A stretch of 33,468 bases of DNA from Clostridiales bacterium (lineage in GTDB: Bacteria; Bacillota; Clostridia; Lachnospirales; Lachnospiraceae), in the NCBI GenBank assembly GCA_021199255.1, contig JAJQIK010000068.1, positions 1-33,468 on the forward strand. The letters run 5' to 3'. Position numbers and translations under genes: made by a program. The stretch's first letter is position 1. Each line of letters begins with the position of its first letter. Below, one piece after another: positions 1-33,468 of this stretch. The notes beneath the pieces are model-generated. The model did not search any database, had not been told where the DNA came from, and worked only from the letters and a program-made list of their open reading frames with translations.

Positions 1-55
1 TGTGCAATAGTAACAAATTTAAAGAAAAGCACAAATTAAACTTGAAATTTACATT
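1..55 (+). repeat. Left copy of a 55-bp perfect inverted repeat bounding the window
   Basis: Bases 1-55 are the exact reverse complement of 33414-33468. It begins TGTGCAATAGTAACA and is AT-rich. Identity stops exactly at base 56 (G here, C in the reverse complement of the other end). No transposase or recombinase lies inside the window. It could be a terminal repeat of an element, the inner edge of a longer inverted repeat outside the window, or a shared assembly-graph node with k = 55. Confidence 0.97.
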
Positions 56-83
56 GAAAATTTAAACAAAATGTTACTAAATT
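54..83 (+). promoter_or_regulatory. Weak candidate promoter for the rfbD operon
   Basis: TTGAAA at 54-59 and TAAATT at 78-83 are separated by 18 bases. The -35 overlaps the last two bases of the inverted repeat. The -10 matches only 4 of 6 consensus positions, so this is a tentative call in an AT-rich stretch where chance matches are common. Confidence 0.25.
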
Positions 84-248
84 ATTACAAAAAGTTTGGG
101 AATGTGCTTAGATGTGGGGGTAACAGATTTGCGGGAAAAGAAAGACGAGGGGTAAGAAGAATCGGTAAGGAAGAATTGGGCTTAAGAATTGCATAATTGA
201 CTCATAAGTTGTAAGATAGAATGAGCGTAGAACAGCAATAAGGAACGC
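56..248 (+). other. Non-coding AT-rich leader upstream of rfbD
   Basis: No credible gene is seen here; the reading frames lack ribosome sites and family resemblance. The stretch carries a weak candidate promoter near its left edge (listed separately) and a second weak one around 189-217 (TTGCAT, 17 bases, TAAGAT). The likely role is the 5' untranslated leader of the polysaccharide operon. The repeat module at 249-357 follows directly. Confidence 0.5.
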
Positions 249-357
249 GGCTATTTGTTTGTGAGCGGAAGCGAATGGCCCCGGAAGGCGGAAAAGAATA
301 ATTTTCACAGAATTTTGCCTCTTTGCGATAAACCGCTTAGAAATGGAGATTATAATG
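249..357 (+). repeat. Dispersed intergenic module, copy A, ending in the rfbD ribosome site
   Basis: It begins with GGCTATTTG (249-257), which pairs with CGAATGGCC (272-280) through two G-U wobbles. A looser second hairpin follows (GGC/AAAA against TTTTGCC). It ends with CTTAGAAATGGAGATT leading into the rfbD start at 355. The same order of parts recurs at 4271-4373 and 10333-10491. The hairpin arms differ in sequence but still pair, which favours a structured element. Confidence 0.7.
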
Positions 358-1203
358 AAAAAGATTATTGTAACAGGCTGTAACGGACAGTTGGGACGGG
401 CTATTAATTTACAATATGCAGGAAATGGGGAATACGAACTGATTAATACAGATGCGGGCGAGTTGGACATTACGAGGATAGACGACGTGATGAAATTTGT
501 GCGTGATATACAGCCCTATGCCATTATCAACTGCGCTGCCTATACGGCGGTGGAGGCCTGCGAGAAGGAGGAGGATCTCGCGTTCAGGATTAATGCTATC
601 GGACCGCGTAATCTCAGTATTGCATCGCAGGAAACGGGCGCGAAGCTGATGCATGTGTCTACGGACTATGTGTTTGACGGAAATGGAAGCAGACCGTACA
701 GGGAGACTGACCCAGTGGGGCCTCAGGGCGCTTATGGAAGAACAAAGCTGGCGGGGGAGAATTTTGTAAAGGAATTTTGCGGGCAGCATTTTATCGTGCG
801 TACTGCATGGCTGTATGGCGACGGTAAAAACTTTGTTAAGACGATGCTGCGTCTGTCCGAGACTAACGACAAGGTAAGGGTTGTCAGGGATCAGGTGGGT
901 TCGCCCACCAGCGCCAGGGAACTGGCCAAGGCCATCGCGTATCTGCTTCCTACGGAGAACTATGGGCTGTTCCACGGGACCTGTGAAGGGGACTGCAGTT
1001 GGGCGCAGTTTACGGAGGAAATATACAGATTGGCGGGCAAAAATACCGTGGTAGAGGGCATAACATCGGAAGAGTACGGCGCGGCCGTAAAACGTCCGGC
1101 ATATTCTATCTTAGAGAATTATATGCTTAAGATGACCACAGATTTTATGTTTGCGGATTGGCATGATGCGATAGCGGAGTATCTTGCGGATGTTCCCAGG
1201 TAG
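355..1203 (+). CDS. rfbD: dTDP-4-dehydrorhamnose reductase (RmlD/RfbD)
   Basis: Last enzyme of dTDP-L-rhamnose synthesis: it reduces dTDP-4-dehydro-L-rhamnose with NAD(P)H in the cytoplasm. The 282-residue protein has the short-chain dehydrogenase layout: nucleotide-binding GCNGQLG at 8-14, STDYVFDG at 102-109 and the catalytic pair Y127/K131 (YGRTK). Length is normal for the family. The start at 355 is preferred over an in-frame ATG at 343, because GGAG at 345-348 lies six bases upstream of 355 and the family N-terminus begins MKKIIVTG. It is the first gene of the locus. The partner genes rfbA, rfbB and rfbC are absent from the window, so they must lie elsewhere if rhamnose is made. A 182-base gap without a recognisable signal separates it from gmd. 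Confidence 0.93.
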   Translation: MKKIIVTGCNGQLGRAINLQYAGNGEYELINTDAGELDITRIDDVMKFVRDIQPYAIINCAAYTAVEACEKEEDLAFRINAIGPRNLSIASQETGAKLMHVSTDYVFDGNGSRPYRETDPVGPQGAYGRTKLAGENFVKEFCGQHFIVRTAWLYGDGKNFVKTMLRLSETNDKVRVVRDQVGSPTSARELAKAIAYLLPTENYGLFHGTCEGDCSWAQFTEEIYRLAGKNTVVEGITSEEYGAAVKRPAYSILENYMLKMTTDFMFADWHDAIAEYLADVPR

Positions 1204-1385
1204 GGGAATGTGGCTGATAAGGGCGCGGGACGCCTCTGGCCGCGCGGCGCCGAAGCTGGACAGACTGCCGGAACGACAAAAGGAAAAGCTTTACAGAAGG
1301 TAGAGTTTATGAGAAAATGATACCAGTTTCAAGATGCGGGAAACGGCATGGAAACGCAGAATAAAAGAAAGGCATGGGAGTTATT

Positions 1386-2456
1386 ATGCAGAGAATAGCG
1401 TTTATTACAGGTATTACAGGTCAAGATGGTTCTTATCTGGCCGAGTTTTTGCTGGAAAAGGGATACGAGGTGCACGGCCTGATTCGCAGGCACAGCATTA
1501 CCAATACGGCGAGAATCGATCATCTGATTGCTTCTGATTATTATAAAGTTAAATTTTTCCTGCATTTTGCGGATACCACAGATTCCAGCAATCTGATGCG
1601 GCTGATTGCCGAGATTCGCCCCACGGAGGTTTATAATCTGGCGGCGCAGTCCCACGTTGGGATATCCTTTGAAGTACCGGAATACACCGCGGAGGCGACA
1701 GGAGTCAGTACCTTAAAGCTGTTAGAGGCAATCCGCGTCAACGGCGGAACGTGCAGATTCTATCAGGCGTCTACTTCGGAACTGTTCGGCGGTATTCCCG
1801 AAACGGCGCCGCAGAGCGAAAAGACTCCGTTTTATCCCAAGAGCCCTTATGGCGCGGCGAAGCTGTATTCCTATTGGATTACGGTCAATTACAGAGAATC
1901 CTATAATATGTTTGCCTGCAATGGCATTTTGTTTAACCACGAGTCACCCAGACGGGGCGAGAATTTTGTTACGAGAAAGATTACGCTGGCGATTGCGAAT
2001 ATTATCGCGGGCAGACAGGAGAAGCTGTCTCTGGGCAATATGAATGCGAAACGCGACTGGGGCTTTGCGGGGGATTATGTGAAAGGTATGTGGCTTATGT
2101 TACAGCAGGATAAGCCTGATGATTTCGTACTTGCCACCAATGAAACCCATACCGTCAGAGAGTTTGTGGAAGCGGCATTTGACCAGTTAGGCATAGAAAT
2201 TCTTTGGAAAGGTACCGGCGTCAATGAGAAAGGGTACGACGCAAAGACGGGCAGGATTCTCGTAGATGTGAATCCTGAGTTCTATCGCCCGGCTGAAGTG
2301 GAATTTCTCTGGGGAGACTGTAGTAAGGCTGAAAAGGTGCTGGGCTGGAAGCGCGATGTAGATTTCAGGGGACTGGTCGCTATGATGATGGACGCGGATT
2401 TACAGGAAATCGCGGGAATGAGCTGCGCTGATTATAGGGCGCAGAACCAGGAGTAA
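1386..2456 (+). CDS. gmd: GDP-mannose 4,6-dehydratase
   Basis: Converts GDP-D-mannose to GDP-4-dehydro-6-deoxy-D-mannose, the first step to GDP-L-fucose and other GDP-6-deoxyhexoses. The 356-residue extended SDR shows TGITGQDG at 8-15 (NADP binding), STSELFG at 129-135 with the catalytic Thr/Glu, Y155/K159 (SPYGAAK), and the family signature [11 protein letters not shown] at 184-194. Length matches bacterial Gmd. The start at 1386 is chosen because GGGAG at 1376-1380 sits five bases upstream; the in-frame ATG at 1374 overlaps that site. Its product would be used by Fcl, encoded at 4408 after one intervening membrane-protein gene. Identification is firm. Confidence 0.96.
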
Positions 2457-2524
2457 TTCGGCAACAGAGACTCTAAATCACGCAGCTATGGAAAGCGCGT
2501 AGTTACGAAAAGGCGTGGGTATCT

Positions 2525-4270
2525 ATGCTATCAGTGATATTAATATGGTGCTATATGCTGGTCACTGCCTTTGGGACAGGCTATGGGGTGTTGCGGGCGA
2601 TTACCTCCCGTGTCCCTTATCGAATCAGGCATGTAGACAGTTATTTGATGTGCGGGCTTGTGTGCGTCACGGTGTATGCAGAATTTTTCAGCCTGTTTGA
2701 TCGGGTTGGGTTACTTGCGAATCTGATTCTGTGCGGGGCGTGCGCCCTGATCCTATGGCGCGACAGGCGGGTATTGGGCGGTAAGCTGCGGGAATTGCTG
2801 GCTGGCGCAAAGGGCAAAAGGAAAGCCTGCGTTTACCTGTTTCTCTTCCTGTTATTCGCCTATGGAACCTCACGGGGAATGATTCATTACGATACCGGTC
2901 TGTATCATGCGCAGAGTATTCGTTGGCTGGAAGAATATGGCGTGGTAAAGGGACTGGGGAACCTGCATTGCAGGCTGGCATATAACAGTTCGTCTTTTGC
3001 GCTGTCGGCTCTGTACAGTATGCCCTTTCTGGGAGGGCAGTCCTATCATTGCTGTGCGGGGCTGCTGGCCTTGATCATAGCTGGAATCTGTCTGGAAATT
3101 GGTGATTCGCTGAGAGCCGGAAGGCTGAAGGTCAGCGATTTCGCCCGCGTCATGGGTATTTACTATCTGGTCATTATTTTTGATGAGATGATTTCGCCCG
3201 CCTCTGACTATTTTATGGTGCTGATCGCGTTTTATATTGTGATTCGCTGGCTTGACCTGCTGGAGAGCGGGGAGAAAGTCATCGTGCCCTACGCCCTTTT
3301 ATGTGTTATGGGGGTGTTTTTGGTCACGGTAAAATTGTCAGCGGCGCTGATTCTGCTTTTGACGCTCCAGCCGGCCTATTATCTTCTGAAGGAAAGGAGA
3401 GGGCGGGAGACGGCGGGATATCTGCTTCTCGGCTGTCTTGTGGCGCTGCCTTATCTGATCAGAAATGTGATCATTTCCGGCTGGCTGGTATATCCCTTCA
3501 CCGGAATTGACTGGTTTTCGGTTTCCTGGAAAATACCGAAGGGGCTGGCGGATTATGACGCCAGAGAGATTCAGGTCTGGGGCAGGGGCTATACAGATGT
3601 GTCGCAGTTTGACCGTTCCATAAGGGACTGGCTGCCGGAGTGGTTTCAGGCGTTGGAGAACAGTGATAAGCTTTTGGTGCTGGCGGCGGCATTTTCTGTG
3701 TGTGTGCTGCTGTTATATGGAGTCGGTATGCTGTGGGGGCTGCTGCGCTCCAGAAAGCGCAGCGGGGCAGGAAAACCGTTGGCGGAGCAGTGGCATATGC
3801 TGCTGGTACAGGGAACGATGGCGGGTTCCTTTCTTTTTTGGCTGGGGACGTCGCCTTTGATTCGTTATGGCTGCGTCTATGTATATCTGACTTCCGCGGT
3901 GGTTCTGGGCGGCCTGTACGACAGGCTGGTAAATCGGACCGGCAGAACCGGCGCGGCGGTTCAAAAGAGCGCCGCCCTGTGGCGTCGCAGCGTTAACGGG
4001 CTGTGTATGGCGGCGGTGACGCTGCTTATTCTCTATAAAGCGTGCGCTTTAGGAAGAGAAATCATGGGGGCTTATGTAGATGATTACTGGCTGGCGCAGA
4101 AGGATTACGAGAATTATGAAGTAATTCCCTATGAGCTCAACGGCGTGACCTTTTATTATCCGGCGCAGGGCGATCAGGTCGGTTATGAGAGCTTTCCCTC
4201 TTCGCCGGCCAGAGCGGAGATCGGCTTTCTGGGACAGGAGATCGAGGACGGATTTTACAGTCCGGATTAG
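2525..4270 (+). CDS. Large polytopic membrane protein, LIC_10190-like
   Basis: A 581-residue protein with about ten hydrophobic segments spread over its length and a hydrophilic C-terminal tail of about 75 residues (ending IEDGFYSPD). The segment around residues 120-150 (DTGLYHAQSIRWLEEYG, then GLGNLHCRLAYNSSSF) resembles the LIC_10190 family of polysaccharide-locus membrane proteins, as I recall that family. Their function is not established; the topology recalls GT-C glycosyltransferases or polymerases. It lies between gmd and fcl, so it is probably cotranscribed and acts on the same polymer. The ATG at 2525 has only a weak ribosome site (GTGGG). It is not clearly a flippase: no MATE/Wzx-type repeat pattern was noticed. 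It could serve as a second polymerase. Confidence 0.72.
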   Translation: MLSVILIWCYMLVTAFGTGYGVLRAITSRVPYRIRHVDSYLMCGLVCVTVYAEFFSLFDRVGLLANLILCGACALILWRDRRVLGGKLRELLAGAKGKRKACVYLFLFLLFAYGTSRGMIHYDTGLYHAQSIRWLEEYGVVKGLGNLHCRLAYNSSSFALSALYSMPFLGGQSYHCCAGLLALIIAGICLEIGDSLRAGRLKVSDFARVMGIYYLVIIFDEMISPASDYFMVLIAFYIVIRWLDLLESGEKVIVPYALLCVMGVFLVTVKLSAALILLLTLQPAYYLLKERRGRETAGYLLLGCLVALPYLIRNVIISGWLVYPFTGIDWFSVSWKIPKGLADYDAREIQVWGRGYTDVSQFDRSIRDWLPEWFQALENSDKLLVLAAAFSVCVLLLYGVGMLWGLLRSRKRSGAGKPLAEQWHMLLVQGTMAGSFLFWLGTSPLIRYGCVYVYLTSAVVLGGLYDRLVNRTGRTGAAVQKSAALWRRSVNGLCMAAVTLLILYKACALGREIMGAYVDDYWLAQKDYENYEVIPYELNGVTFYYPAQGDQVGYESFPSSPARAEIGFLGQEIEDGFYSPD

Positions 4271-4373
4271 GCGGCTATTTGTGCCGGAGCGCAACGAATA
4301 GCTTTGATGGCAGACGCACATCTGATATTTGCGTCGCCTCGTCGCTAACGCTTCGGAACGGGGATTGGTGTGA
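4271..4373 (+). repeat. Dispersed intergenic module, copy B, between membrane protein and fcl
   Basis: It starts right after the preceding stop codon. Hairpin 1 pairs GGCTATTTG (4273-4281) with CGAATAGCT (4295-4303). The linker TGATGGCAGACG (4305-4316) is identical to copy C. Hairpin 2 pairs GACGCA with TGCGTC. It ends in CTTCGGAACGGGGATTGGTG, followed by TGA (to 4373), matching the 3' module of the other copies. Here the last part is not the direct ribosome site of fcl, which starts 35 bases further on. Confidence 0.72.
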
Positions 4374-4407
4374 GATTAAGATTTGAGAGAAAGGCAGGAT
4401 AAACATT

Positions 4408-5349
4408 ATGAATAAAACAGATAAAATTTACGTGGCGGGTCATAGGGGCTTAGTGGGAAGCGCTATCGTGCGGAATCTGCAGGCGAAGGGCTATCAGAAT
4501 ATTATCGGCAGAACGCACAGGGAATTGGATTTGACAAATCAACAGGCAGTCAGAGATTTCTTTGAGGCTGAAAGACCGGACGCGGTAGTGCTGGCAGCAG
4601 CCAAGGTAGGCGGTATTAATGCGAATAATACTACTCCCGCTGAATTTGCCTATGAGAATATGCAGATTCAGTGTAATGTAATCAAATGCTGTCATGATTA
4701 TAAGGTAAAGAAGCTGCTGTTTTTGGGAAGCACCTGTATTTACCCTAAGATGGCGCCTCAGCCCATTCCGGAGGACGCCCTGCTGACAGGCCCTCTGGAA
4801 GTGACGAATGAGGCTTATGCCATTGCCAAGATTGCCGGGCTGGAAATGTGCAAATTCTATAAAAGGCAGTACGGGGACGACTTTATTAGCTGTATGCCGA
4901 CTAATCTCTACGGCCCCCACGATAACTATGATTTGCAGGGCTCTCATGTGATGCCTGCCATGATTCGCAAGTTTCACGAGGCCAAAATCAATCAGGCGCC
5001 GTCGGTGGAGCTGTGGGGAACAGGCACGCCGCTGCGGGAATTTCTATATGTAGACGATATGGCGGACGCCTGCGTTTTCTTATTGGAAAATTATAGCGGC
5101 GAACAGCACGTGAATATTGGTACCGGCAAGGAAGTGACTATCAGAGAATTGGCGGAAACAGTACAAAAGGCTGTAGGGTACGAGGGAGAGATTGTGTGGA
5201 ACAAGGATATGCCGGACGGTACGCCCCGCAAGCTGACAGATGTGACCAAGCTGCATGGACTGGGCTGGAAGCATAAGGTGGAGCTGGAGGAAGGAGTACG
5301 GCTTGCTTATGACTGGTTCCGGGAAAATGTGGAAGACGCCAGACTGTAA
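4408..5349 (+). CDS. fcl: GDP-L-fucose synthase
   Basis: Epimerises and reduces GDP-4-dehydro-6-deoxy-D-mannose to GDP-L-fucose with NADPH. The 313-residue SDR protein has GHRGLVG at 11-17, GSTCIYP at 107-113 and the catalytic Y137/K141 in NEAYAIAK. Length is as usual for GDP-fucose synthases. The start at 4408 follows an A/G-rich stretch with GGCAGGA about eight bases upstream. Together with gmd at 1386 it gives a complete route from GDP-mannose to GDP-fucose, which a glycosyltransferase of the locus probably uses. It is the last gene before the independent Spo0A-like unit. Function is firm by motif and pairing with gmd. Confidence 0.96.
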
Positions 5350-5376
5350 CCAGATTTCCAGTGCGATAACTTACCG

Positions 5377-5405
5377 TTTACAGTGCTGTCATTGTTTGAT
5401 ATTAT
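5377..5405 (+). promoter_or_regulatory. Sigma-A-type promoter of the Spo0A-like gene
   Basis: TTTACA at 5377-5382 and TATTAT at 5400-5405 are separated by exactly 17 bases; each hexamer matches 5 of 6 consensus positions. It lies between fcl and the Spo0A-like gene, about 44 bases upstream of the chosen start. With the terminator at 5869-5898 it makes this gene a monocistronic unit. Confidence 0.65.
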
Positions 5406-5411
5406 GTCAAA
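5405..5411 (+). promoter_or_regulatory. Candidate 0A box (Spo0A-type binding site)
   Basis: TGTCAAA fits the core 0A-box pattern TGTCRAA. It overlaps the last base of the -10 and the expected transcription start of the downstream Spo0A-like gene, a position suited to autorepression. It is part of a small inverted repeat, TTTGA (5395-5399) with TCAAA (5407-5411). A 7-base match can arise by chance; its location is what makes it notable. Confidence 0.35.
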
Positions 5412-5448
5412 TGTAGTAATTATTACCGGCAGGAGGAGTAAAAGGGGA

Positions 5449-5829
5449 ATGTTACAAGTAAATAGTGTGAGTAAGCAGGAGTTGGAGCAGGCAATCTCGG
5501 ATTTCATGCTGGAACTGGGAATACCCGCTCATTTGAGAGGGTATCAGTATTTGCGCAGCGCAGTTAGTATGTGCGCGGAAAATATGGAACTGGTGGGCAG
5601 CGTGACGAAGCTTTTATATCCTGACCTGGCGAAATTGTACCAGACGACGGATCAGAAGATAGAGAGGGCTATCCGCAATGCTATTGAGGTATCCTGGGAA
5701 AGAGGAAACAGCGAATTGTTCGAGGAATTATTTGGATACTGTAATGGGAATGGTTACAGCAGACCTACCAATAGCGAATATATTGCCACAGTGGCGGATT
5801 ATATACGTTTGAAATATGAGTTATTGTAA
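5449..5829 (+). CDS. Stand-alone Spo0A C-terminal DNA-binding domain protein
   Basis: A 126-residue protein that is almost entirely the Spo0A effector domain. Residues about 10-125 follow that domain closely: LGIPAHLRGYQYLRSAV at 23-39, SVTKLLYPDLAKLYQTT at 51-67, the recognition-helix region IERAIRNAIEVSWERGN at 71-87, and RPTNSEYIATVADYIRLK at 105-122. The phosphoacceptor receiver domain of true Spo0A is missing, so DNA binding should not depend on phosphorylation. The start at 5449 is chosen because AGGAGG (5431-5436) and AGGGGA (5443-5448) precede it; in-frame ATGs at 5383 and 5404 lie within the promoter. It has its own promoter, a candidate 0A box and a terminator. It likely regulates the flanking polysaccharide genes, itself, or both. 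Domain assignment is firm; targets are inferred. Confidence 0.85.
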   Translation: MLQVNSVSKQELEQAISDFMLELGIPAHLRGYQYLRSAVSMCAENMELVGSVTKLLYPDLAKLYQTTDQKIERAIRNAIEVSWERGNSELFEELFGYCNGNGYSRPTNSEYIATVADYIRLKYELL

Positions 5830-5868
5830 GGGACGGGCTTTGCTCCGGCCATAATATAGCGAATGTGG

Positions 5869-5898
5869 GAAGGAAGAGACAGGTCTCTTCCTTTTTTT
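5869..5898 (+). terminator. Rho-independent terminator after the Spo0A-like gene
   Basis: AGGAAGAG (5871-5878) pairs with CTCTTCCT (5885-5892) over a short loop and is followed by a run of seven T (5892-5898). It closes transcription from the left part of the locus, so the glycosyltransferase operon that follows needs its own promoter. None is clear in 5899-6003; TAAAAT at 5950-5955 with a poor -35 (TAGTCT, 5927-5932) is the best candidate. Confidence 0.88.
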
Positions 5899-6003
5899 GT
5901 ATAACTATGATAGAATTATGTTGAATTAGTCTGACTATTATTGGCAGGCTAAAATAGACAGGCAGGAATTTTCGCACTTTGAGAGAAGGGCATGGTTATC
6001 GGT

Positions 6004-6933
6004 ATGAAGTTACTCAGCGTCATTGTACCTTGTTATAATGAAGAAGAAAATGTCAGGGATTTTTATGACGAATTATTCAGGAACGCGTCTTTTTTTCGGG
6101 AAAAAGAAATAGAAGTAGAGATTTACTATATTGACGATGGTTCCAGTGATAAGACCGCGGAAGAGATTAGAAAGCTCCATGCGGAAGACGAAAGGGTGCA
6201 TATGGTATCCTTTTCCAGAAACTTCGGCAAGGAGGCGGCTATTTATGCCGGCCTGCAGAAGTCGAAGGGGGATCTGGTGGTGTTGATGGACGCGGATTTG
6301 CAGGATCCGCCGTCGATGCTTCCTGAGATGTATGCGTATATAGAGCAGGGATATGATTCCGTGGCAACCAGACGGGTGACGAGAGCGGGCGAGCCGCCGA
6401 TCCGGTCTTTTTTCGCCAGAGTGTTTTATCGGATTATGAATCAGATCTCCAAAACGGAGATTGTAGACGGCGCCAGAGATTATCGTCTGATGACCAGACA
6501 GGTGGTGGACGCTATTCTTGCCATGACGGAATATAATCGTTTTACCAAGGGGATTTTCGGCTGGGTAGGCTATGAGACGAAGTGGCTGGAATATGAAAAT
6601 GTGGAGCGCAGGAAGGGGGAGACGAAATGGTCTTTCTGGAAGCTTTTCCTGTATTCCTTAGAAGGCATTACGGCATTTTCTACGGTGCCTCTCACCATTG
6701 CCTCCGTAATGGGCGTGTTGTTTTGTGTACTGGCCTTTCTCCTGATTATTGTGACAATTATCAGGAAGGTTTGCTTTGGAGATCCCACCTCCGGCTGGCC
6801 ATCTCTGGTATGCCTTATTATGCTGGTAAGCGGCGTGCAGTTGTTTTGTCTGGGTATCGTCGGGCAATACTTATCTAAGACTTATATGGAAGTGAAGAGA
6901 AGGCCGATTTATCTGGTGAAAGAGGATATTTAA
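6004..6933 (+). CDS. GtrB/DPM1-like polyprenyl-phosphate glycosyltransferase (GT2)
   Basis: Probably transfers a sugar from a nucleotide donor to undecaprenyl phosphate on the cytoplasmic face. The 309-residue protein has the GT2 catalytic domain (VIVPCYNEE at 6-14, DDGSSDKT at 44-51, MDADLQDPP at 95-103) followed by two membrane helices near 229-253 and 265-288 and a basic tail with QYLSKTYMEVKRRP. That layout is typical of GtrB, YfdH and ArnC relatives. The family N-terminus begins at M6004; an in-frame ATG at 5992 is possible, but the A/G-rich site at 5983-5990 is almost adjacent to it. The sugar is not predictable. Polyprenyl-phosphate sugars usually serve GT-C enzymes on the outer face, and candidates occur at 16847 and 22445. 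Confidence 0.9.
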   Translation: MKLLSVIVPCYNEEENVRDFYDELFRNASFFREKEIEVEIYYIDDGSSDKTAEEIRKLHAEDERVHMVSFSRNFGKEAAIYAGLQKSKGDLVVLMDADLQDPPSMLPEMYAYIEQGYDSVATRRVTRAGEPPIRSFFARVFYRIMNQISKTEIVDGARDYRLMTRQVVDAILAMTEYNRFTKGIFGWVGYETKWLEYENVERRKGETKWSFWKLFLYSLEGITAFSTVPLTIASVMGVLFCVLAFLLIIVTIIRKVCFGDPTSGWPSLVCLIMLVSGVQLFCLGIVGQYLSKTYMEVKRRPIYLVKEDI

Positions 6934-7826: not shown

Positions 7827-7890
7827 CTTCCTTGTCCTGAGGATTTCTTTGCGGCAGTCTGCCCTGTCGTGGAAAAGCAGATGATAAATT

Positions 7891-25775: not shown

Positions 25776-25811
25776 GGTATGTCCGTCCTTTCATAGAGTT
25801 ACGTTACCTGT

Positions 25812-25840
25812 AGTATAGCGATTTCACGGGGAAATGGCAA
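25812..25840 (-). promoter_or_regulatory. Promoter of pseG (minus strand)
   Basis: On the minus strand TTGCCA (25835-25840) and TATACT (25812-25817) are separated by 17 bases. The GCTATACT core equals that of the pseB promoter. The start codon lies 36 bases downstream. The region 25776-25877 also holds the araC upstream sequence, in which I see no clear plus-strand promoter. Confidence 0.75.
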
Positions 25841-25877
25841 ATATTTTGATCAACCGATTCAAACGGCGGGGGAAGCA

Positions 25878-26816
25878 ATGGGAAATGTGAGCAGGAAGAA
25901 AAAGCAGATACAGTTTCGTTATTATGAGATTCCGCAGAATCAGCCTTTGATGGCGCTGCTGGGGGATTATTGGATACGTCCTTACGGAGAAGGGGTGGAT
26001 TCCCTGCATTTTCACAATTATATGGAAATCGGCTTTTGCTATGACGGCAAGGGCGAGCTGGTGCTGGACGAACAGATCATTTCGTATGGACCGGATATGT
26101 TTACCGTTATTCCCAAGAATTTTCCCCATACCACCGAGAGCGAGAACGGCTCCCTGAATCGCTGGGAATATCTGTATCTTGACGTGGAGAGCTTTCTGCA
26201 TGAGGTATATCGGGAACAGCCTGTCTTTGCAGACGATATGATTGAACGGATTAACAGCAGGGCGCGTCTGGTCAAGGTGGCGGAGCAGCCGGAGGCCGCC
26301 AGCCTGATTTTGGCTATTTTAAATGAAATGCGGGAAAAGAAGGAGTTCTACCTGGAAACGGTCTACGGGCTTATGCTTTCCCTGTTGATGCATATTGCGC
26401 GGATGAGCCGTAAGTCTTCCGGCAGGGTCAGAAAACAGACGGGCGGGCTTACGCAGATAGCGGAGGCGCTGGATTATATCAGCAGACACTTTGAACAGGA
26501 GCTGTCGATCGGAGACCTGGCGGCGGTCAGCCATATGTCGGAAACTCATTTCAGGCGTATTTTTTTCAAGAATATGCATATGACGCCCTCCGATTATCTG
26601 AATATGGTACGGGTCCATGCGGCCTGCGAATATATGAAAAAGCATGACGTTCCCATGGAACTGGTGGCGGAGAACTGCGGTTTCCATTCAGTGTCCACTT
26701 TTAACCGTAATTTTAAGAAAATAGTGGGCATTACGCCCTATCAGTGGAAAATACATCCCGAAAATTATGAAGGAAAATTGCTGAATTTTAAGATTTCCGC
26801 ATATAAGGGCTGGTAG
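25878..26816 (+). CDS. AraC-family transcriptional regulator
   Basis: A 312-residue regulator: an N-terminal cupin-like ligand domain (SLHFHNYMEIGFCYDGKGEL at about 42-61, then IPKNFPHTTES) and a C-terminal AraC double helix-turn-helix (ALDYISRHFEQELSIGDLAA, SETHFRRIFFKNMHMTPSDY, ENCGFHSVSTFNRNFKKIVG). The cupin type is common in sugar-responsive regulators next to ABC uptake operons. It lies divergent from pseG and directly upstream of the sugar-binding, permease and beta-galactosidase genes, so it probably activates those in response to their sugar. The start has a GGGGGA site five bases upstream. A terminator follows at 26853-26885, so read-through into the operon should be limited. Confidence 0.92.
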   Translation: MGNVSRKKKQIQFRYYEIPQNQPLMALLGDYWIRPYGEGVDSLHFHNYMEIGFCYDGKGELVLDEQIISYGPDMFTVIPKNFPHTTESENGSLNRWEYLYLDVESFLHEVYREQPVFADDMIERINSRARLVKVAEQPEAASLILAILNEMREKKEFYLETVYGLMLSLLMHIARMSRKSSGRVRKQTGGLTQIAEALDYISRHFEQELSIGDLAAVSHMSETHFRRIFFKNMHMTPSDYLNMVRVHAACEYMKKHDVPMELVAENCGFHSVSTFNRNFKKIVGITPYQWKIHPENYEGKLLNFKISAYKGW

Positions 26817-26852
26817 GGCAGAGGAGGGGCTGCGATAACGTAAACGTTTAAG

Positions 26853-26885
26853 GTGCAAATTCATGGTCGAATTTGCACTTTTTTT
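26853..26885 (+). terminator. Rho-independent terminator after the AraC gene
   Basis: GTGCAAATTC (26853-26862) pairs perfectly with GAATTTGCAC (26869-26878) over a six-base loop, followed by seven T. A palindrome TAAACGTTTA lies just upstream (26841-26850); it resembles the core of LacI-family or catabolite sites but matches poorly at the flanks. Confidence 0.93.
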
Positions 26886-26921
26886 GCTCTATATCAACAA
26901 CATGGACAAAAATCAAAGAGT

Positions 26922-26927
26922 TATAAT
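26922..26927 (+). promoter_or_regulatory. Consensus -10 without a -35: likely activator-dependent promoter
   Basis: TATAAT sits about 125 bases upstream of the sugar-binding protein gene. No acceptable -35 hexamer is found at 15-19 bases upstream, a pattern typical of promoters that need an activator such as the neighbouring AraC-type protein. Two ATCAA copies, 19 bases apart (26893-26897 and 26912-26916), are possible activator half-sites. Confidence 0.4.
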
Positions 26928-27009
26928 GCATATACAATCTTCCCAAAATCTTTAGAAATTATACAAATTGACGAAAGACTCTGGGCGATTGCAAAAAGTA
27001 AAAGAAAAA

Positions 27010-27026
27010 TGTGCACAAAATGCACA
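27010..27026 (+). promoter_or_regulatory. Palindrome in the 5' leader of the sugar-uptake operon
   Basis: TGTGCA (27010-27015) and TGCACA (27021-27026) form an inverted repeat with a five-base spacer, ten bases before the ribosome site GGGAGGAAG. It could be a repressor operator or a short RNA stem affecting translation. TGTGCA and TGCACA also form the outer ends of the window's terminal repeat, probably by chance. Confidence 0.35.
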
Positions 27027-27051
27027 AAAACAAAATGGGAGGAAGAAGTAA

Positions 27052-28419
27052 ATGAAAAGAAAGATTTTAGCAGCTTTACTGGCGTCCACCATGGTCGTTT
27101 CCCTTGTGGGATGCGGTTCGGGCTCTGAGGAAGCGGCTTCCACCGCAGCTACGGAAGACACAGCGGCAGCGGAAGATACGGCTGAAGAGGAAGCTCCGGC
27201 GGAGATGTCCGCTGCGGCAGCAGGAGAGAATAAGCTGACGGTGGCTGCATGGGATGCGAACTTTAACATTCCTGCGCTGGAAGCGGCAGCAGAAGATTAT
27301 AAGGCAAATGTAGACGATACATTTGAATTGGAGATTATTGAGCAGTCCCAGTCCTCTGATATTGAGGATGCCATTACGCTGGCAGGTTCATCAGGCGATT
27401 ACAGCACCTTGCCGGACATCGTACTGTTCCAGGATCACTGGATTCAGAAGTACGTAAGCGATTATCCGGACGCATGGCAGGATGTGGATGACGCAGATGT
27501 GGATTGGGATGATTTCGGCGCTGAGAAGTTATCATATTCTACAATCAACGGCAAGCATTACGGTTTCCCTGTGGACAATGGTACGGTAGTATTCGCCTAT
27601 AGAATTGATGTTCTGGAGGAATGTGGCTATACCATTGAAGATATGACAGGTATTACATGGGATGAGTTTATCGCCATCGGCGAAGAGGTTTACGCTAAGA
27701 CCGGTAAATACTTACTTTCCATGGACGGTGATGGAAACGACCTGATCTACATGATGCTTCAGGCAGAGGGCGGTTCCCAGTTCAAGGACGGCCAGCCTTA
27801 TATTACAGAGAATGAGGATCTGGTTCAGGTATGCGAGAAGATCGTAGAGATGGTTCAGAAGAATGTCTGCTATCTTGCAAATGACTGGTCCGATTACACA
27901 GACCAGACGATTATCGGCGACATGGTTGCAGGCGTTATGAATGGTAACTGGATTATTCCTACCATCGAGCAGGTTTCTGAGAACAGCGGTAAGTGGGAGA
28001 TCACATCTATGCCTACGCTTGACGGCGGCGAGGGTTATGCTTCTAACGGCGGTTCTTCCCTTTACGTTACGGCTAACTGCCAGAATCCTGATCTTGCCAA
28101 GAAATTCCTTGCTTATACCTTTGGCGGCAGCACTGTAACCTATGACGGAGCCCTTCGCGACGGCGGCGTTATCACATGTTGTATTTCGGCCGGACAGTCT
28201 GACGTATACAATGAGGGCGTTGCTTACTTCAACGATACGCCGATTTACGCTGAGATCGTAGAAATGGGTGCAAACGTACCGGTAATAGAGCAGAACGACT
28301 TCCATTACACAGCCCGTACTTATATGGCGGCAGCTATTATCAATGCGGTTCAGGGCGCCGACCTTGCAACCGAGTTACAGGCGGCAGAGGACAATCTGAA
28401 CTTTGCTATGGGCAACTAA
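27052..28419 (+). CDS. Sugar ABC transporter substrate-binding lipoprotein
   Basis: A 455-residue extracytoplasmic solute-binding protein of the CUT1 class, captured on the membrane outer face. Signal peptide residues 1-20 lead to a lipobox ending SLVGC, with the lipidated Cys21. An acidic Ala/Glu-rich linker (about 22-57) precedes the binding domain, which starts KLTVAAWDANF. DIVLFQDHWIQKY and KHYGFPVDNGTVVFAYR are typical cluster 1 blocks. The ribosome site GGGAGG lies well placed before 27052. Two permease genes follow, but no ATPase gene, so a shared MsmX-type ATPase encoded elsewhere is expected. The likely ligand is a galactose-containing oligosaccharide, inferred only from the adjoining beta-galactosidase gene. 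Confidence 0.92.
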   Translation: MKRKILAALLASTMVVSLVGCGSGSEEAASTAATEDTAAAEDTAEEEAPAEMSAAAAGENKLTVAAWDANFNIPALEAAAEDYKANVDDTFELEIIEQSQSSDIEDAITLAGSSGDYSTLPDIVLFQDHWIQKYVSDYPDAWQDVDDADVDWDDFGAEKLSYSTINGKHYGFPVDNGTVVFAYRIDVLEECGYTIEDMTGITWDEFIAIGEEVYAKTGKYLLSMDGDGNDLIYMMLQAEGGSQFKDGQPYITENEDLVQVCEKIVEMVQKNVCYLANDWSDYTDQTIIGDMVAGVMNGNWIIPTIEQVSENSGKWEITSMPTLDGGEGYASNGGSSLYVTANCQNPDLAKKFLAYTFGGSTVTYDGALRDGGVITCCISAGQSDVYNEGVAYFNDTPIYAEIVEMGANVPVIEQNDFHYTARTYMAAAIINAVQGADLATELQAAEDNLNFAMGN

Positions 28420-28453
28420 AATAAATCTGTATTAGAAACAGACAGTTATTCCA

Positions 28454-28491
28454 AATAAACGGGGAATCGGTTTTCCGACGCCCCGTTTATT
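28454..28491 (+). promoter_or_regulatory. Long hairpin between binding protein and permease genes
   Basis: AATAAACGGGG (28454-28464) pairs with CCCCGTTTATT (28481-28491), and an inner stem TCGG/CCGA closes a TTTT loop. No T-run follows. Hairpins here commonly protect the abundant binding-protein message or end part of the transcripts, giving more binding protein than permease; that role is inferred. Confidence 0.8.
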
Positions 28492-28543
28492 ATCAAACGG
28501 GTTCATAAATGATAAGATGTATTGATACAAGGGGGCAACATCA

Positions 28544-29443
28544 TTGAAGAATAAGAAATCGACAGTGCTGGCAAAACAGCACAGGGCCGGCTGGATTTAT
28601 CTGGCGCCTGCGACTCTGTTAATCGCAGTCATGAGTTTTTATCCGATGATCCAGGCATTTATTATGTCTCTGAAAACCGGTTCCAGCGCCAATATGCAGT
28701 GGGCAGAGCCGGTTACCTATAATTACACACGAATGTTTCAGGACAAATTATTTATTCGTTCTGTTGGCAATACTTTTCTGTATCTGATTATTCAGGTGCC
28801 GATTATGCTGGTGCTGGCTATGCTGCTCGCCCAACTGTTAAACAATAAAGATCTGAAATTCAAGGGACTGTTCCGCACCTGTATTTTCCTTCCGTGCGCA
28901 ACCTCGCTTGTATCCTATTCTTTGATTTTCAAATCCATGTTCGCGACCAATGGATTGGTTAACTCCGTACTGCTGAACTTAGGCCTGATTGAGAATAATA
29001 TTAATTTTATCGGAACCACAAGTACGGCGCGCATGGTGATTATCATAGCGTTGATCTGGAGATGGACGGGATATAATATGGTGTTTTATCTTGCCGGTTT
29101 GCAGGGGATAGAGTACTCTGTATATGAAGCGGCTAAGATCGACGGCGCGAACGGCTGGCAGACCTTCTGGCGGATTACAGTGCCGCTGTTAAAGCCTACG
29201 ATTGTAATGACGGCGATTATGTCCATTAACGGTACGCTGCAGTTGTTCGATGAATCTGTCAACCTGACAAGCGGAGGCCCTGCTAATTCAACGATTACGA
29301 TGTCCCATTATATTTATCAGAACTCCTTCGGCGACTTTGTAGCGAACTTTGGATATGCTTCCGCGTTATCCTTTGTGGTATTTATCATGGTTGCGGTGCT
29401 TTCGGCAATCAACTTGAAAGTAGGTGATAAGCGTGACGACTAA
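28544..29443 (+). CDS. Sugar ABC transporter permease (MalF/UgpA-like)
   Basis: A 299-residue CUT1 permease with six membrane helices. The first follows RAGWIYLAPATLLIAVMSFYP (about 14-34). The EAA loop reads YEAAKIDGANGWQTFWRITV (about residues 192-211), where the ATPase docks. The gene starts with TTG at 28544, eight bases after AAGGGGG; no ATG fits. Its 3' end overlaps the next permease gene by 11 bases, so the two are translationally coupled, as expected for a heterodimeric membrane channel. Confidence 0.93.
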   Translation: MKNKKSTVLAKQHRAGWIYLAPATLLIAVMSFYPMIQAFIMSLKTGSSANMQWAEPVTYNYTRMFQDKLFIRSVGNTFLYLIIQVPIMLVLAMLLAQLLNNKDLKFKGLFRTCIFLPCATSLVSYSLIFKSMFATNGLVNSVLLNLGLIENNINFIGTTSTARMVIIIALIWRWTGYNMVFYLAGLQGIEYSVYEAAKIDGANGWQTFWRITVPLLKPTIVMTAIMSINGTLQLFDESVNLTSGGPANSTITMSHYIYQNSFGDFVANFGYASALSFVVFIMVAVLSAINLKVGDKRDD

Positions 29444-30269
29444 GAAAAAAACAGGACACTCCACGATTCAGAGAAGACTCATTCCCACCTATATTTTCCT
29501 GATTATTGTGTCTTTGATTTCCGTATTCCCGTTCTATTGGATGGTTACGGCTGCAACGAATACGACGGTAGAGGTTGCGAGGGGAAAGATTGTATTCGGT
29601 ACGCATCTGGTGGAGAACTTTACCAACCTGCTGGCGCAGCAGAACTTATGGGGAGCGCTGAAAAACTCCTTCTTATATGCTGGCGTACAGACGGTTGTAG
29701 CGCTTTTTATCTGCTCGCTTGCGGGCTATGGCTTTGAGTTATACCACGACCGGTATAAGGATCGGCTCTTTTCCATTCTGCTGCTGGCGATGATGGTTCC
29801 TCAGGTGGCGACCATGATTCCGTTGTTCAAGATGGTGGCGAAGCTGAAGCTGTTAAATACGGTCTGGGCGTTTATTTTACCCGCGATTTCCACGCCCTTT
29901 TTGATTATGATGTTCAGGCAGAATTCCCGGAATTTCCCGATGGATATTATGGAGGCCGCGCGGATAGACGGATTGAGTGAGTTTAAGATTTTCTTTAAGA
30001 TGTATATGCCGGTTATGAAGGCGACCTATGCGGCAGCCGCCGTTATTACCTTTATGAATGCGTGGAACGCGTATATGTGGCCGAAGGTTGTTATGAGCGA
30101 TAACCGCGCCCAGACAATGCCTATGCTGATTGCTAATCTGGCCGCGGGCTACACGGTGGATTACGGAATGTTGATGATGGCGGTGCTGTTCTGCTCCTGC
30201 CCGACTATGATTATTTTCTTTGTACTGCAAAAGCAGTTTGCGGAAGGTATTACCGGTGCCGTCAAATAA
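29433..30269 (+). CDS. Sugar ABC transporter permease (MalG/UgpE-like)
   Basis: A 278-residue CUT1 permease, partner of the preceding one. It has six membrane helices and the EAA loop MEAARIDGLSEFKIFFKMYM in the second half, followed by the WNAYMWPKVV block typical of MalG-like subunits. The start is GTG at 29433, with AGGTGAT just upstream; GTG at 29424 overlaps that site. It begins inside the 3' end of the previous gene. Between its stop and lacZ lie 85 bases with a weak hairpin. Confidence 0.93.
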   Translation: MTTKKKTGHSTIQRRLIPTYIFLIIVSLISVFPFYWMVTAATNTTVEVARGKIVFGTHLVENFTNLLAQQNLWGALKNSFLYAGVQTVVALFICSLAGYGFELYHDRYKDRLFSILLLAMMVPQVATMIPLFKMVAKLKLLNTVWAFILPAISTPFLIMMFRQNSRNFPMDIMEAARIDGLSEFKIFFKMYMPVMKATYAAAAVITFMNAWNAYMWPKVVMSDNRAQTMPMLIANLAAGYTVDYGMLMMAVLFCSCPTMIIFFVLQKQFAEGITGAVK

Positions 30270-30310
30270 CCATGGCAGTATGGCGGCGTCCGTTACGGTT
30301 CGCGCCATGG
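30270..30310 (+). promoter_or_regulatory. Weak hairpin between permease and lacZ
   Basis: CCATGGC (30270-30276) pairs with GCCATGG (30304-30310) right after the permease stop codon. The enclosed sequence offers a competing stem, TGGCG (30281-30285) with CGCCA. No T-run follows. It may modulate lacZ expression relative to the permeases. Confidence 0.45.
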
Positions 30311-30354
30311 ATATTGGGACAGACAAATTATAATGATAATGAAGAGGATAAGTT

Positions 30355-33300
30355 ATGGCAACGTTTGATTATGCAAAAGTAAAAGATCCTGCATGTTACA
30401 AAGAGAACGTACTTGACGCACATTCTGCTCACATGACTTATGCGGATAGAAGTGAGCTGTTTTCTGAAAACAGCTCACTTATTATGTCGCTGGACGGTGT
30501 TTGGAAGTTCTCTTATGCAGTAAATTATCAATCTGCGGTTCCGGGCTTTGAGAAGCCGGAATATGACTGCGGAGGCTGGGACAGTATTCGTGTGCCGGCA
30601 CATATTCAGATGGAGGGGTATGACGCGCCGCATTACGCGAATACCCAGTATCCCTGGGACGGCAGAGAGGAATTGAGGCCGGGGCAGATTCCGGAACGGT
30701 TTAATCCGGTAGCCAGCTATGTGAAATATTTTGAACTTCCGGAAAAGATGAGGGGCAAAGCGGTCAGGATTTCCTTTCAGGGAGCGGAGAGCGGCATGGC
30801 GTTATGGCTCAACGGCGAGTATGTGGGTTACAGCGAGGACAGCTTTACCCCTTCGGATTTTGATTTAACGCCTTATATCAGAACGGGTGTGAATAAGCTG
30901 GCAGTCCAGGTATTTAAGTGGACGTCTTCAAGCTGGTGTGAGGATCAGGATTTCTTCAGATTTTCCGGTCTTTACAGAAGTGTGTATCTATACGCTGTAC
31001 CAAAGGTTCATGTGGAAGATTTATGCGTTAAGACCTTATTTGAGGAGGATTGCTTTGAACGGGCGGTGCTGGCAGTGGGGCTTAAGGTTTCCGGGGAAGG
31101 CAGGCTGAGGCTTCTTCTCAAGGATCAGGGGCGCACGGTCGCAGAATGTGTACGGGAAGCCTGCGGTACGGTTGCCGTGGAACAGGAAATCACGTCGCCG
31201 CAGTTATGGAGCGCGGAAAGCCCTTATCTGTACACGATGGAAATAGAGGTTTATGACAGCGATGGAAACCTGACGGAGTTCATTCCCCAGAAGGTAGGCT
31301 TCCGCAAGTTTGAATTAAAGAATAAGCGGCTGCTTTTAAACGGCAGGCGGATTGTATTCAAAGGCGTGAACCGCCATGAGTTCAGCTCCGTTTCCGGACG
31401 CCATGTATCCGATGAAGAGCTGGAAAAGGATATTGTGACTATGAAACAGAACAATATCAATGCCATTCGTACCTGCCATTATCCGGATGATGTAAGGATT
31501 TATGATTTGTGCGACCGTTATGGAATATATATGATTGCGGAAAATAACCTTGAGACGCACGGAACATGGGCAGCCTGTCTGAAAGGCGCGCAGGATGAGT
31601 CCTTTATCCTGCCTGATGATAAGCCGGAGTGGAAGCCCATGATGTATGACCGCGTTAATTCCTGCTATCAGAGGGATAAGAATCATCCCGCGATCTTGAT
31701 GTGGTCTCTTGGAAACGAGTCTTATGGGGGCGAGACGCTGTATGAAATGTCGCAGATGTTCCGCAGGCTGGACGATACCAGACTGGTTCATTATGAAGGC
31801 GTTTTCCAGGACCGCAGATATAACGACAGTTCCGATGTGGAAAGCCGTATGTATGCCAAGGCGGCGGAAATCCGGGAATACCTTGAGACGGACGGCGGTA
31901 AGCCCTTTGTCTGCTGCGAATATATGCACGCCATGGGAAATTCCTGCGGCGCGATGAATAAGTACACAGAATTGGCTGATCAGGAAAATTCCGGCTATCA
32001 GGGCGGTTTTATCTGGGATTATATCGACCAGTCCCTTTATAAAAAGAATCGTTATGGAAAGTGGTTCCAGGCATACGGCGGAGATTTCGGCGACCGACCC
32101 ACCGATTATAATTTCAGTGGAAACGGAATTGCCTACGGCGGTTTGCGGGAGGCTTCCCCCAAAATGCCTTCGGTGAAGTTTCATTATCAGAATATTGCCG
32201 TGACCGTGAGGGCTGGGGAGTTTGAGGTCTGGAATAAAAACCTTTTTGTCAATACCGACGCTTTTCAATGCGTGGCGCAGCTTCTGCGCAATGGTGTGGT
32301 GATTGATGAGCGGGAGCTGGAAAATATCGCGGTGCCGCCGGAGTCGAAGGCTGTGTTCCCCATTCCCTTTGCGACGCCGGAGCGGGCGGGAGAATATGCG
32401 GTGACCATATCCTTCCGCTTAAAGCGCGATGAGCTTTGGGCGAAGCGTGGCCATGAGGTGGCCTTTGGGCAGGCGGTGACCGCGCTGGTGCAGGAGCCTG
32501 TCAAGGCGGAGCCGAAGCCCTATACGTTGATTCGCGGCAACGATAATATCGGCGTCCGGGGGGAGGATTTCGATGTGCTTTTCTCAGAGCTTTCCGGCGG
32601 ATTGGTGTCCTATCGCTATGCCGGAAAGGAATTGATTGAGGAGATTCCCAGACCCAACTTCTGGCGCGCCCCGACCGACAATGATATGGGGAATAATATG
32701 GTTGGCCGCCAGGGACAGTGGAAGCTGGCCAGCATGTACGCGACCTGTAAGGGAGCCGGGAAGCTTCTCGATACGCCGACGGAGCATTATGAGAATCCGG
32801 TTGTGCGGGAAACAAAGGATTATGTCAGCGTAAAGTATTTTTATCATTTACAGACTACTCCCAGTGCGGAATGTCAGTTGGAGTATTGCGTATACGGCGA
32901 TGGCCGCATACAGACGAAGCTGACCTATACGCCGGTGGCGGGGCTGCCCGATATGCCGGAATTTGGAGTGATGTTTAAGTTTGACGCCGATTTTGACCGG
33001 ATAGAATGGTATGGCAACGGCCCGCAGGAAACCTATGAAGACAGAAAGCAGGGCGCCAGGCTGGGCGTATATCGCGGTATGGTTGCCGATTCCATGGCGG
33101 CCTATCTGGTGCCGCAGGAGTGCGGCAACAAGACGGACGTCCGTTATGCCAGGGTGGTAGATCGAAGGGGAAGGGGAATTTTGTTTAGCGGGGAAAATAT
33201 GAATTTTTCGGCGCTTCCTTATACCCCTCATGAGATTGAGAACGCCAGACATCCTTATGAGCTGCCGGAGGTACATTACACAGTGGTTCGCGTTGCGAAA

Positions 33301-33411
33301 CAGCAAATGGGCGTGGGCGGCGACGATAGCTGGGGCGCACCGGTGCATCTTGAGTATCATATCCCGGTTGACAGCCCTCTGGAGTTTACCTTTACCTTCC
33401 GCGGTATCTGA
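30355..33411 (+). CDS. lacZ: Beta-galactosidase, GH2 family, LacZ type
   Basis: Cytoplasmic hydrolase that cleaves terminal beta-galactosides such as lactose. The 1018-residue protein has the five-domain LacZ layout: N-terminal sugar-binding domain (WDGREELRPGQIP), jelly-roll and Ig-like domains, a TIM barrel with acid/base E455 in LGNES and nucleophile E522 in CCEYMHAMGNSCG, and the C-terminal galactose-mutarotase-like domain (NFWRAPTDNDMG, WYGNGPQETYEDR). Length is near that of E. coli LacZ (1024), and no signal peptide is present. GAGGA precedes the start. It is the last gene of the sugar-uptake operon and ends two bases before the right inverted repeat. A 13-bp perfect hairpin is encoded near codons 33-42. 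The true substrate could be a host or plant galactoside instead of lactose. Confidence 0.96.
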   Translation: MATFDYAKVKDPACYKENVLDAHSAHMTYADRSELFSENSSLIMSLDGVWKFSYAVNYQSAVPGFEKPEYDCGGWDSIRVPAHIQMEGYDAPHYANTQYPWDGREELRPGQIPERFNPVASYVKYFELPEKMRGKAVRISFQGAESGMALWLNGEYVGYSEDSFTPSDFDLTPYIRTGVNKLAVQVFKWTSSSWCEDQDFFRFSGLYRSVYLYAVPKVHVEDLCVKTLFEEDCFERAVLAVGLKVSGEGRLRLLLKDQGRTVAECVREACGTVAVEQEITSPQLWSAESPYLYTMEIEVYDSDGNLTEFIPQKVGFRKFELKNKRLLLNGRRIVFKGVNRHEFSSVSGRHVSDEELEKDIVTMKQNNINAIRTCHYPDDVRIYDLCDRYGIYMIAENNLETHGTWAACLKGAQDESFILPDDKPEWKPMMYDRVNSCYQRDKNHPAILMWSLGNESYGGETLYEMSQMFRRLDDTRLVHYEGVFQDRRYNDSSDVESRMYAKAAEIREYLETDGGKPFVCCEYMHAMGNSCGAMNKYTELADQENSGYQGGFIWDYIDQSLYKKNRYGKWFQAYGGDFGDRPTDYNFSGNGIAYGGLREASPKMPSVKFHYQNIAVTVRAGEFEVWNKNLFVNTDAFQCVAQLLRNGVVIDERELENIAVPPESKAVFPIPFATPERAGEYAVTISFRLKRDELWAKRGHEVAFGQAVTALVQEPVKAEPKPYTLIRGNDNIGVRGEDFDVLFSELSGGLVSYRYAGKELIEEIPRPNFWRAPTDNDMGNNMVGRQGQWKLASMYATCKGAGKLLDTPTEHYENPVVRETKDYVSVKYFYHLQTTPSAECQLEYCVYGDGRIQTKLTYTPVAGLPDMPEFGVMFKFDADFDRIEWYGNGPQETYEDRKQGARLGVYRGMVADSMAAYLVPQECGNKTDVRYARVVDRRGRGILFSGENMNFSALPYTPHEIENARHPYELPEVHYTVVRVAKQQMGVGGDDSWGAPVHLEYHIPVDSPLEFTFTFRGI
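30451..30479 (+). repeat. 13-bp perfect inverted repeat inside lacZ
   Basis: AGTGAGCTGTTTT (30451-30463) is the exact reverse complement of AAAACAGCTCACT (30467-30479), with a three-base loop. It lies about 100 bases into the gene, in frame, encoding SELFSENSSL in the variable N-terminal stretch. No T-run follows. Confidence 0.95.
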
Positions 33412-33413
33412 GG

Positions 33414-33468
33414 AATGTAAATTTCAAGTTTAATTTGTGCTTTTCTTTAAATTTGTTACTATTGCACA
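33414..33468 (-). repeat. Right copy of the 55-bp perfect inverted repeat
   Basis: Exact reverse complement of bases 1-55, ending ...TGTTACTATTGCACA. It starts only two bases after the stop codon of the beta-galactosidase gene, so that gene ends practically on the repeat edge. No U-tract terminator hairpin is visible in it. Confidence 0.97.

What the first reader, a model, noticed from the sequence alone, without database searches (positions are those of the whole stretch)
1..33468. The window is bounded by a perfect 55-bp inverted repeat
Bases 1-55 and 33414-33468 are exact reverse complements, and identity ends abruptly at base 56. One reading is that inverted copies of a longer repeat (an insertion sequence or an invertible-switch end) flank a 33-kb polysaccharide and lactose segment, so that the segment could invert or move as a unit. 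The other reading is technical: 55 is a common assembler k-mer size, and a contig that begins and ends at the same graph node shows exactly this. Even then, the genome must contain this sequence in inverted orientation on both sides. No recombinase or transposase is in the window.
Basis: partly seen in the sequence, partly recalled or inferred. Interest (0 to 1): 0.72.

Follow-up and report, generated by a model that had tools for sequence, protein, structure and literature searches.

The report
Insertion-element ends bounding an assembly contig
The matching inverted ends of this DNA piece are one end of a repeated insertion element at which the genome assembly broke, not the borders of a mobile or proven flippable 33-kb segment, so the finding is ordinary.

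Summary
The 55-bp inverted repeat is real and exact. The window is one whole contig (C33) of a 93-contig draft genome. Technical: contig tips of this assembly repeatedly share exactly 55 bp (6 pairs in the same direction, 3 end to end), the mark of a k=55 graph. Biological: 53 of the 55 bp are one terminus of an insertion-sequence-like element that is itself absent from the readable draft; the last 2 bp (TT) are flank shared by chance. A third copy of the terminus is at the tip of C38. The other terminus was found at the tips of C60 and C63, the contigs that gene order in sister species predicts. Each pair (window right end/C60, C38/C63) carries its own exact 15-bp target duplication, and the two termini are imperfect inverted repeats (19/25). 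So two copies of this terminus face into the block from both sides. But the block's genes are collinear in sister species (27 of 27 ORFs in one, 26 of 27 in another) and the right-hand copy has its own duplication, so the segment did not arrive as a unit. Whether it inverts now cannot be told from contigs. The ends resemble long-duplication IS1202/IS481-type elements; no transposase was available to test this.

The parts
1..53 (-). Terminus of element copy R2 (reading outwards on the - strand: TGTAAATTTCAAGTTTAATTTGTGC...)
   Evidence: Identical to 33416-33468 and to C38:3-55; homology to the sister spacer starts at base 54
54..55 (.). Two flank bases (TT) that agree by chance with the flank at the other end and lengthen the exact repeat from 53 to 55
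   Evidence: C38 reads CA here
54..68 (.). Expected 15-bp target duplication of R2; its partner was not seen
   Evidence: Inferred from the 15-bp duplications of R1 and R3; no partner among the usable tips (best shared stretch 10 bp)
33401..33415 (.). 15-bp target duplication GCGGTATCTGAGGAA of copy R1; second copy at C60:57-71; contains the beta-galactosidase stop codon
33416..33468 (+). Terminus of element copy R1 (TGTAAATTTCAAGTTTAATTTGTGC...); its far end is C60:1-56
343..33411 (+). Polysaccharide cluster and lactose-type operon (RmlD-type reductase to GH2 beta-galactosidase): ancestral chromosome between the two insertions
   Evidence: Pfam; collinear in sister species

Best explanation
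The inverted repeat is the same end of one insertion-sequence-like element (called R here), met at both tips of an assembly contig. R inserted at least three times in this genome, as separate events: at the end of lacZ (R1), in the spacer upstream of the RmlD-type gene (R2), and at the end of a small gene at the C38/C63 junction (R3). A k=55 assembler could not thread the repeat, so contigs stop one k-mer inside it (C63, whose copy is slightly different, goes 115 bp in). The body of R was not found in the readable part of the draft: the draft holds no contig under 2,500 bp, and those under 3 kb are masked here. R1 and R2 happen to present the same end to the block from both sides, which makes the tips reverse complements. 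The 33-kb block is ancestral chromosome, not cargo. Shown: the exact repeat, the k=55 signature, the third copy, the second terminus at C60 and C63, two 15-bp target duplications, terminal inverted repeats, sister junctions between the C38 and C63 flanks without the element. Inferred: that R carries its own transposase, how long it is, and that R2 is full-length.
For: k=55 tips: of 147 usable tips, 6 same-direction pairs share exactly 55 bases from the tip and 3 pairs overlap end to end by exactly 55. Third copy at C38. A pattern made from both termini finds five places in G000: C33 left and right tips, C38, C60 (exact) and C63 (1 mismatch). Window right end/C60 and C38/C63 share exact 15-bp duplications directly at the termini. 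Sister gene order: 6 of 7 sisters run from lacZ to the genes at the left end of C60, and 5 of 5 fetched run from the C38 flank to the C63 flank, there without any insert. Termini 19/25 alike, reached by 0 of 100,000 shuffles. The block is collinear in sisters.
Against: The body of R and its transposase were never seen. The far flank of R2 was not found. In sisters 1.6-3.4 kb of other, variable genes lie between lacZ and the C60 genes, so the exact lacZ/C60 junction rests on the target duplication, not on a clean empty site. 14 of 10,731 tip pairs share some 15-mer in the same geometry, several through other repeats, so a shared 15-mer alone is weak. No relative of R was found in any collection searched, so it cannot be named.
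Confidence: 0.9

Rival explanations
1. The two inverted copies recombine, so that the 33-kb block exists in both orientations in the population (an inversion by homologous recombination).
For: Copies of one terminus face the block from both sides, identical over 53 bp. Contig tips look the same whichever way the block lies, so nothing here excludes it.
Against: [quoted passage not shown] No recombinase family in the window. The target duplication tells how the block lay when R1 inserted, not how it lies now.
Confidence: 0.1
2. A composite transposon: the two copies of R moved the 33-kb block here as one unit.
For: Inverted copies of one element flank the block; no more.
Against: R1 has the same 15-bp duplication on both of its own sides, so it inserted alone. 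The block is collinear in sister species: 27 of 27 window ORFs in G465 and 26 of 27 in G493 in the same order and strand.
Confidence: 0.01
3. A pure assembly artefact (fold-back or chimeric contig) with no second copy in the genome.
For: The length 55 equals the node size of this assembly.
Against: The two ends continue inwards into different genes that lie 33 kb apart in sisters too; a third contig carries the same terminus; independent target duplications.
Confidence: 0.02
4. R is a non-mobile repeat such as an rRNA operon.
For: tRNA genes lie upstream of the block in 5 of 7 sister pieces and the end of a 23S rRNA in 1 of 3 pieces scanned, and such operons often break drafts.
Against: Target duplications and terminal inverted repeats; no such repeat between the C38 and C63 flanks in 5 of 5 sisters.
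Confidence: 0.02

Closest known systems
IS1202 family, long-duplication group (PMC10132070; passages and sections seen)
   Same: Imperfect terminal inverted repeats of about 25 bp (here 19/25), one end starting TGT, target duplications far longer than usual (published 16-28 bp, or a 15-17 bp class as told in PMC10045372; here 15 bp)
   Different: The other end starts TGA (CGA in the C63 copy); the second inner binding site described for some members was not found; no transposase available
IS481 family (PMC10045372; passages seen)
   Same: Some members make target duplications of about 15 bp
   Different: Most members make 6 bp; no transposase available to compare
Short-read contig breaks at multi-copy insertion elements
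   Same: Tips of different contigs share exactly one k-mer (55) and stop just inside the element
   Different: Only that one contig has the same element end at both tips, which happens when two copies lie inverted around it

Membership tests
Insertion sequence (any family) | Target duplication directly at both ends of the element | tested here: met
   Exact 15 bp at window right end/C60 and at C38/C63; the third copy could not be tested
Insertion sequence (any family) | Terminal inverted repeats | tested here: met
   19 of 25 alike, 0 of 100,000 shuffles as good
Insertion sequence (any family) | Multi-copy, absent at the corresponding place in relatives | tested here: met
   Three copies of one terminus; C38/C63 flanks tens of bases apart or less in 5 of 5 sisters. 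For lacZ/C60 the sisters hold other genes, so no clean empty site
Insertion sequence (any family) | Encodes a transposase | not testable with these tools
   The body of R is not in the readable draft
IS1202 family | 5'-TGT and ACA-3' outer bases | tested here: inconclusive
   One end TGT, the other TGA (C60) or CGA (C63)
IS1202 family | Second copy of the inner part of the inverted repeat near each end | tested here: inconclusive
   Local alignments no better than shuffles (fractions 0.14-0.70)
IS1202 family | Large DDE transposase with the family's motifs | not testable with these tools
   No transposase sequence
Composite transposon | One target duplication around the whole unit | tested here: not met
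   R1 has its own duplication on both sides
Site-specific invertible switch | Recombinase gene beside the repeats | tested here: inconclusive
   None among 27 window ORFs; outside the window no family scan was made
k-mer node contig break | Other tips of the same assembly share exactly the same length | tested here: met
   6 + 3 tip pairs at exactly 55 bp, 147 of 186 tips usable

The most novel reading that the evidence does not exclude
R is an undescribed insertion sequence making 15-bp target duplications that lands on gene stop codons without breaking the genes (2 of 2 measured duplications contain the stop codon of a gene transcribed towards the same element end), and its inverted pair around the polysaccharide-lactose block lets these 33 kb flip in the population.
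Probability: 0.05. Interest if true: 0.45.

Novelty: new member of a known kind. Interest (0 to 1): 0.15.

Why it matters
It settles a sequence oddity: exact k-length inverted ends of a contig point to a repeat at both borders, here an insertion element, and not to a mobile unit. The route used (gene order in sister species to tell which contig tips belong together, then target duplications across the missing repeat) recovers both ends of a collapsed insertion element from tips alone. If the inverted pair does recombine, it would be a way to reorient a 33-kb surface-polysaccharide and lactose region.

Tried and rejected
Composite transposon, fold-back artefact and rRNA operon: see rivals.

Searching for R elsewhere: the exact 53-mer has no match in genome contigs or viral contigs. 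With up to 3 mismatches it is in 1 of 61 genomes, G000 itself. BLAST of a 60-mer from C38 gave matches at E<=0.01 in 36 of 397 family genomes; the 35 besides G000 had short AT-rich matches (best E 9.2e-5). I inspected 11 of these loci and recognised no transposase by eye, without a family scan. The outer 25 bp with up to 3 mismatches are in 1 of 294 genomes, G000. A degenerate pattern for both ends is in 27 of 397 genomes, the 26 besides G000 only at 2-3 mismatches, while the reversed control pattern rings in 18 genomes by my count of the listing. Of those 26 I followed one, G107 (two identical matches); the reading frame beside it looked by eye like an IS3-type integrase, so I take it as a chance match. 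A 22-mer of the other end has no match in genome contigs. C63:1-115 has no plasmid match and 3 weak phage matches (E 0.09, in a ribonucleotide reductase gene). Window 1-2500 has no near match in plasmids. The ISNCY transposase model NF033594 matched 10 of 77 genus genomes, none over its cut-off and none in G000; in its 15 loci I found no end pair with a long duplication. Paper searches: one search gave the two papers used; two searches gave nothing used.

My first wording, that lacZ runs 'directly' into C60 in sisters, was wrong and was dropped. The claim of collinearity was first based on the two end genes only and was then tested on 27 ORFs.

The genome sets overlap, so their counts must not be added.

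Full report
What was checked. The window is the whole of contig C33 in a draft genome of 3.08 Mb in 93 contigs. Bases 1-55 and 33414-33468 are exact reverse complements, and the identity stops at once. The same sequence occurs once more in the genome, at C38:3-55, after which C38 reads CA where C33 reads TT at both ends. Thus the shared core is 53 bp, and the last two of the 55 are flank that agrees between the two C33 ends only.

The assembly side. I fetched both tips of all 93 contigs (C33 is the window, C38's left tip came). Of 186 tips, 39 are masked and 147 were compared. Six pairs of tips, read inwards, share exactly 55 bases from their first base (33L/33R, 14L/16L, 23R/90R, and the three pairs among 56R, 73R and 85R), and three pairs overlap end to end by exactly 55 (64L/69L, 57L/66L, 4L/88L). 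This is the mark of contigs cut at nodes of a k=55 graph. C38's left tip is TT plus the 53 bp, again 55 bases to the point where it parts from the others, as expected for a neighbouring node in the same repeat. The shortest contig has 2,500 bases, so a shorter insertion element assembled on its own would be missing.

Sister gene order. No relative carries the sequence itself, so I used gene order. In 7 of the 76 other genus genomes searched (G005, G010, G012, G019, G465, G483, G493) strong matches to the first gene (RmlD type) and to the beta-galactosidase lie on one contig in the same relative order and orientation; an eighth, G031, has both on one contig, but with a weak, short match to the beta-galactosidase, and was not followed. 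In the others they lie on different contigs or one is not found. I then fetched the interiors and placed the 27 window ORFs on them: in G465 27 of 27, and in G493 26 of 27, lie in the same order and strand. In the other five the order is the same except that the homologues of the ORFs at 21393 and, where found, 24627 (a weak match, 32-35%) lie beyond the beta-galactosidase, and 1 to 5 ORFs are not found. So the block is an old neighbourhood with some internal change.

What lies outward. Flanks of these genomes were compared with the G000 stretches held. After the beta-galactosidase, 6 of 7 run on to genes that in G000 lie at the left end of C60 (the contig of G019 ends first). They are not immediate neighbours there: 1.6 to 3.4 kb of other genes lie between, different in different sisters. 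The gene at the left tip of C38 runs on to the left end of C63 in 5 of 5 sisters fetched (G493, G465, G012, G477, G010), with the two flanks at most about 50 bases apart and no insert.

The missing element. At both junctions G000 shows target duplications. The right end of the window reads GCGGTATCTGAGGAA and then TGTAAATTTC...; C60 reads ...AAAGTTTTCA (up to position 56) and then GCGGTATCTGAGGAA. C38 (complement) reads TCCTGAGAAATATTG and then TGTAAATTTC...; C63 reads ...AAAGTTTTCG (up to 115) and then TCCTGAGAAATATTG (the script's 16th matching base is the first T of the terminus). The duplications are 15 bp each and differ between the two sites, as independent insertions should. The two ends of the element, read inwards, are TGTAAATTTCAAGTTTAATTTGTGC and TGAAAACTTTATATTTAAATTGTGC, 19 of 25 alike, which 0 of 100,000 shuffles reached. 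A pattern covering both ends finds in G000 just these five places. The C63 copy differs from the C60 copy at a few bases and by one gap. Control: 14 of 10,731 tip pairs share some 15-mer in this geometry, several through other repeats; the weight lies in the match standing exactly at the termini, at the tips that sister gene order predicts.

The left end of the window. Homology to the sister spacer upstream of the RmlD-type gene begins at base 54 (C33:54-101 against G465, 94%), right after the 53-bp end. In G465, G493 and G005 a divergent lipoprotein-like gene lies on the far side (named by eye), with tRNA genes further out in 5 of 7 upstream pieces and the end of a 23S rRNA in G465 (3 pieces scanned). 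A nucleotide search of G000 with the G465 piece found no match to that lipoprotein-like gene, so the far flank of R2 seems to be missing from the readable draft. That R2 is a complete copy is therefore inferred.

What this means for the segment. The block is ancestral in this part of the genus; the element came later and separately to each site. The composite-transposon reading fails because R1 has its own duplication on both sides. The inversion reading cannot be tested on contigs: tips stay the same whichever way the block lies. The duplication shows how the block lay when R1 inserted, not how it lies now. The first ORFs of C60 look by eye like genes for a sialic-acid-type sugar, so the polysaccharide region probably does not end with the window.

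What kind of element. Long target duplications are uncommon. PMC10132070 (abstract, passages, one part of the text and section 17 seen) describes the IS1202 family with TGT/ACA ends, imperfect repeats of about 25 bp, and duplications of 3-5, 16-28 or 0 bp. PMC10045372 (passages) gives 15-17 bp as one class of IS1202 and reports some IS481 members at about 15 bp. The ends found here fit this style, but one end starts TGA or CGA, the second inner site described for some members was not found, and no transposase is at hand. I therefore say that it works like an insertion sequence with long target duplications, and do not file it in a family.

Two of two measured duplications contain the TGA stop codon of a gene that runs into the same end of the element: the beta-galactosidase (33409-33411) and the small gene of C38 (stop at C38:65-67). 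With two cases, and R2 not fitting this pattern by its inferred site, this is only a lead.

Verdict. The finding is ordinary: an assembly break at a multi-copy insertion element.

Noticed in passing
window 10326-10505 (full copy); 245-361; 4272-4316; 7873-7917 (weak): Dispersed intergenic repeat of about 170 bp: 40 BLAST hits in 1.04 Mb of G000 DNA held, and matches in 40 of 77 genus genomes including G000. It ends in a ribosome-binding-like GG(A/G)GATT; of 27 copies reaching that end, 13 have ATG or GTG soon after it (3 nt in 12, 0 nt in 1) opening a frame of 60 codons or more. It may supply start signals to downstream genes.
   Followed up: partly
window 5383-5829: A 148-aa protein whose only Pfam family is the Spo0A C-terminal DNA-binding domain, without a receiver domain, inside the polysaccharide cluster; homologues at the same place in 7 of 7 sisters.
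   Followed up: partly
window 21393-22424 and 24624-25775: In G465 and G493 these lie before the beta-galactosidase as in the window; in five other sisters the closest match of the first, and in four of them a weak match of the second, lies beyond it.
   Followed up: partly
L213 (G493:C40) 1713-2726 of the locus: Where G000 has the element after the beta-galactosidase, G493 has a 337-aa frame that looks by eye like a tyrosine recombinase/phage integrase, next to a helix-turn-helix frame; not scanned. The site after this gene seems to collect inserts.
   Followed up: no
tips 56R/73R/85R and 56L/68L/73L of G000: Two further groups of three contig tips share a border of 46-55 bp, probably the ends of other multi-copy elements.
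   Followed up: no
L070 (C63) 28-47: Within the 115 bp of the element's other end held in C63 is the palindrome TTTTCCAAACGTTTGGAAAA (sequence, seen by eye).
   Followed up: no
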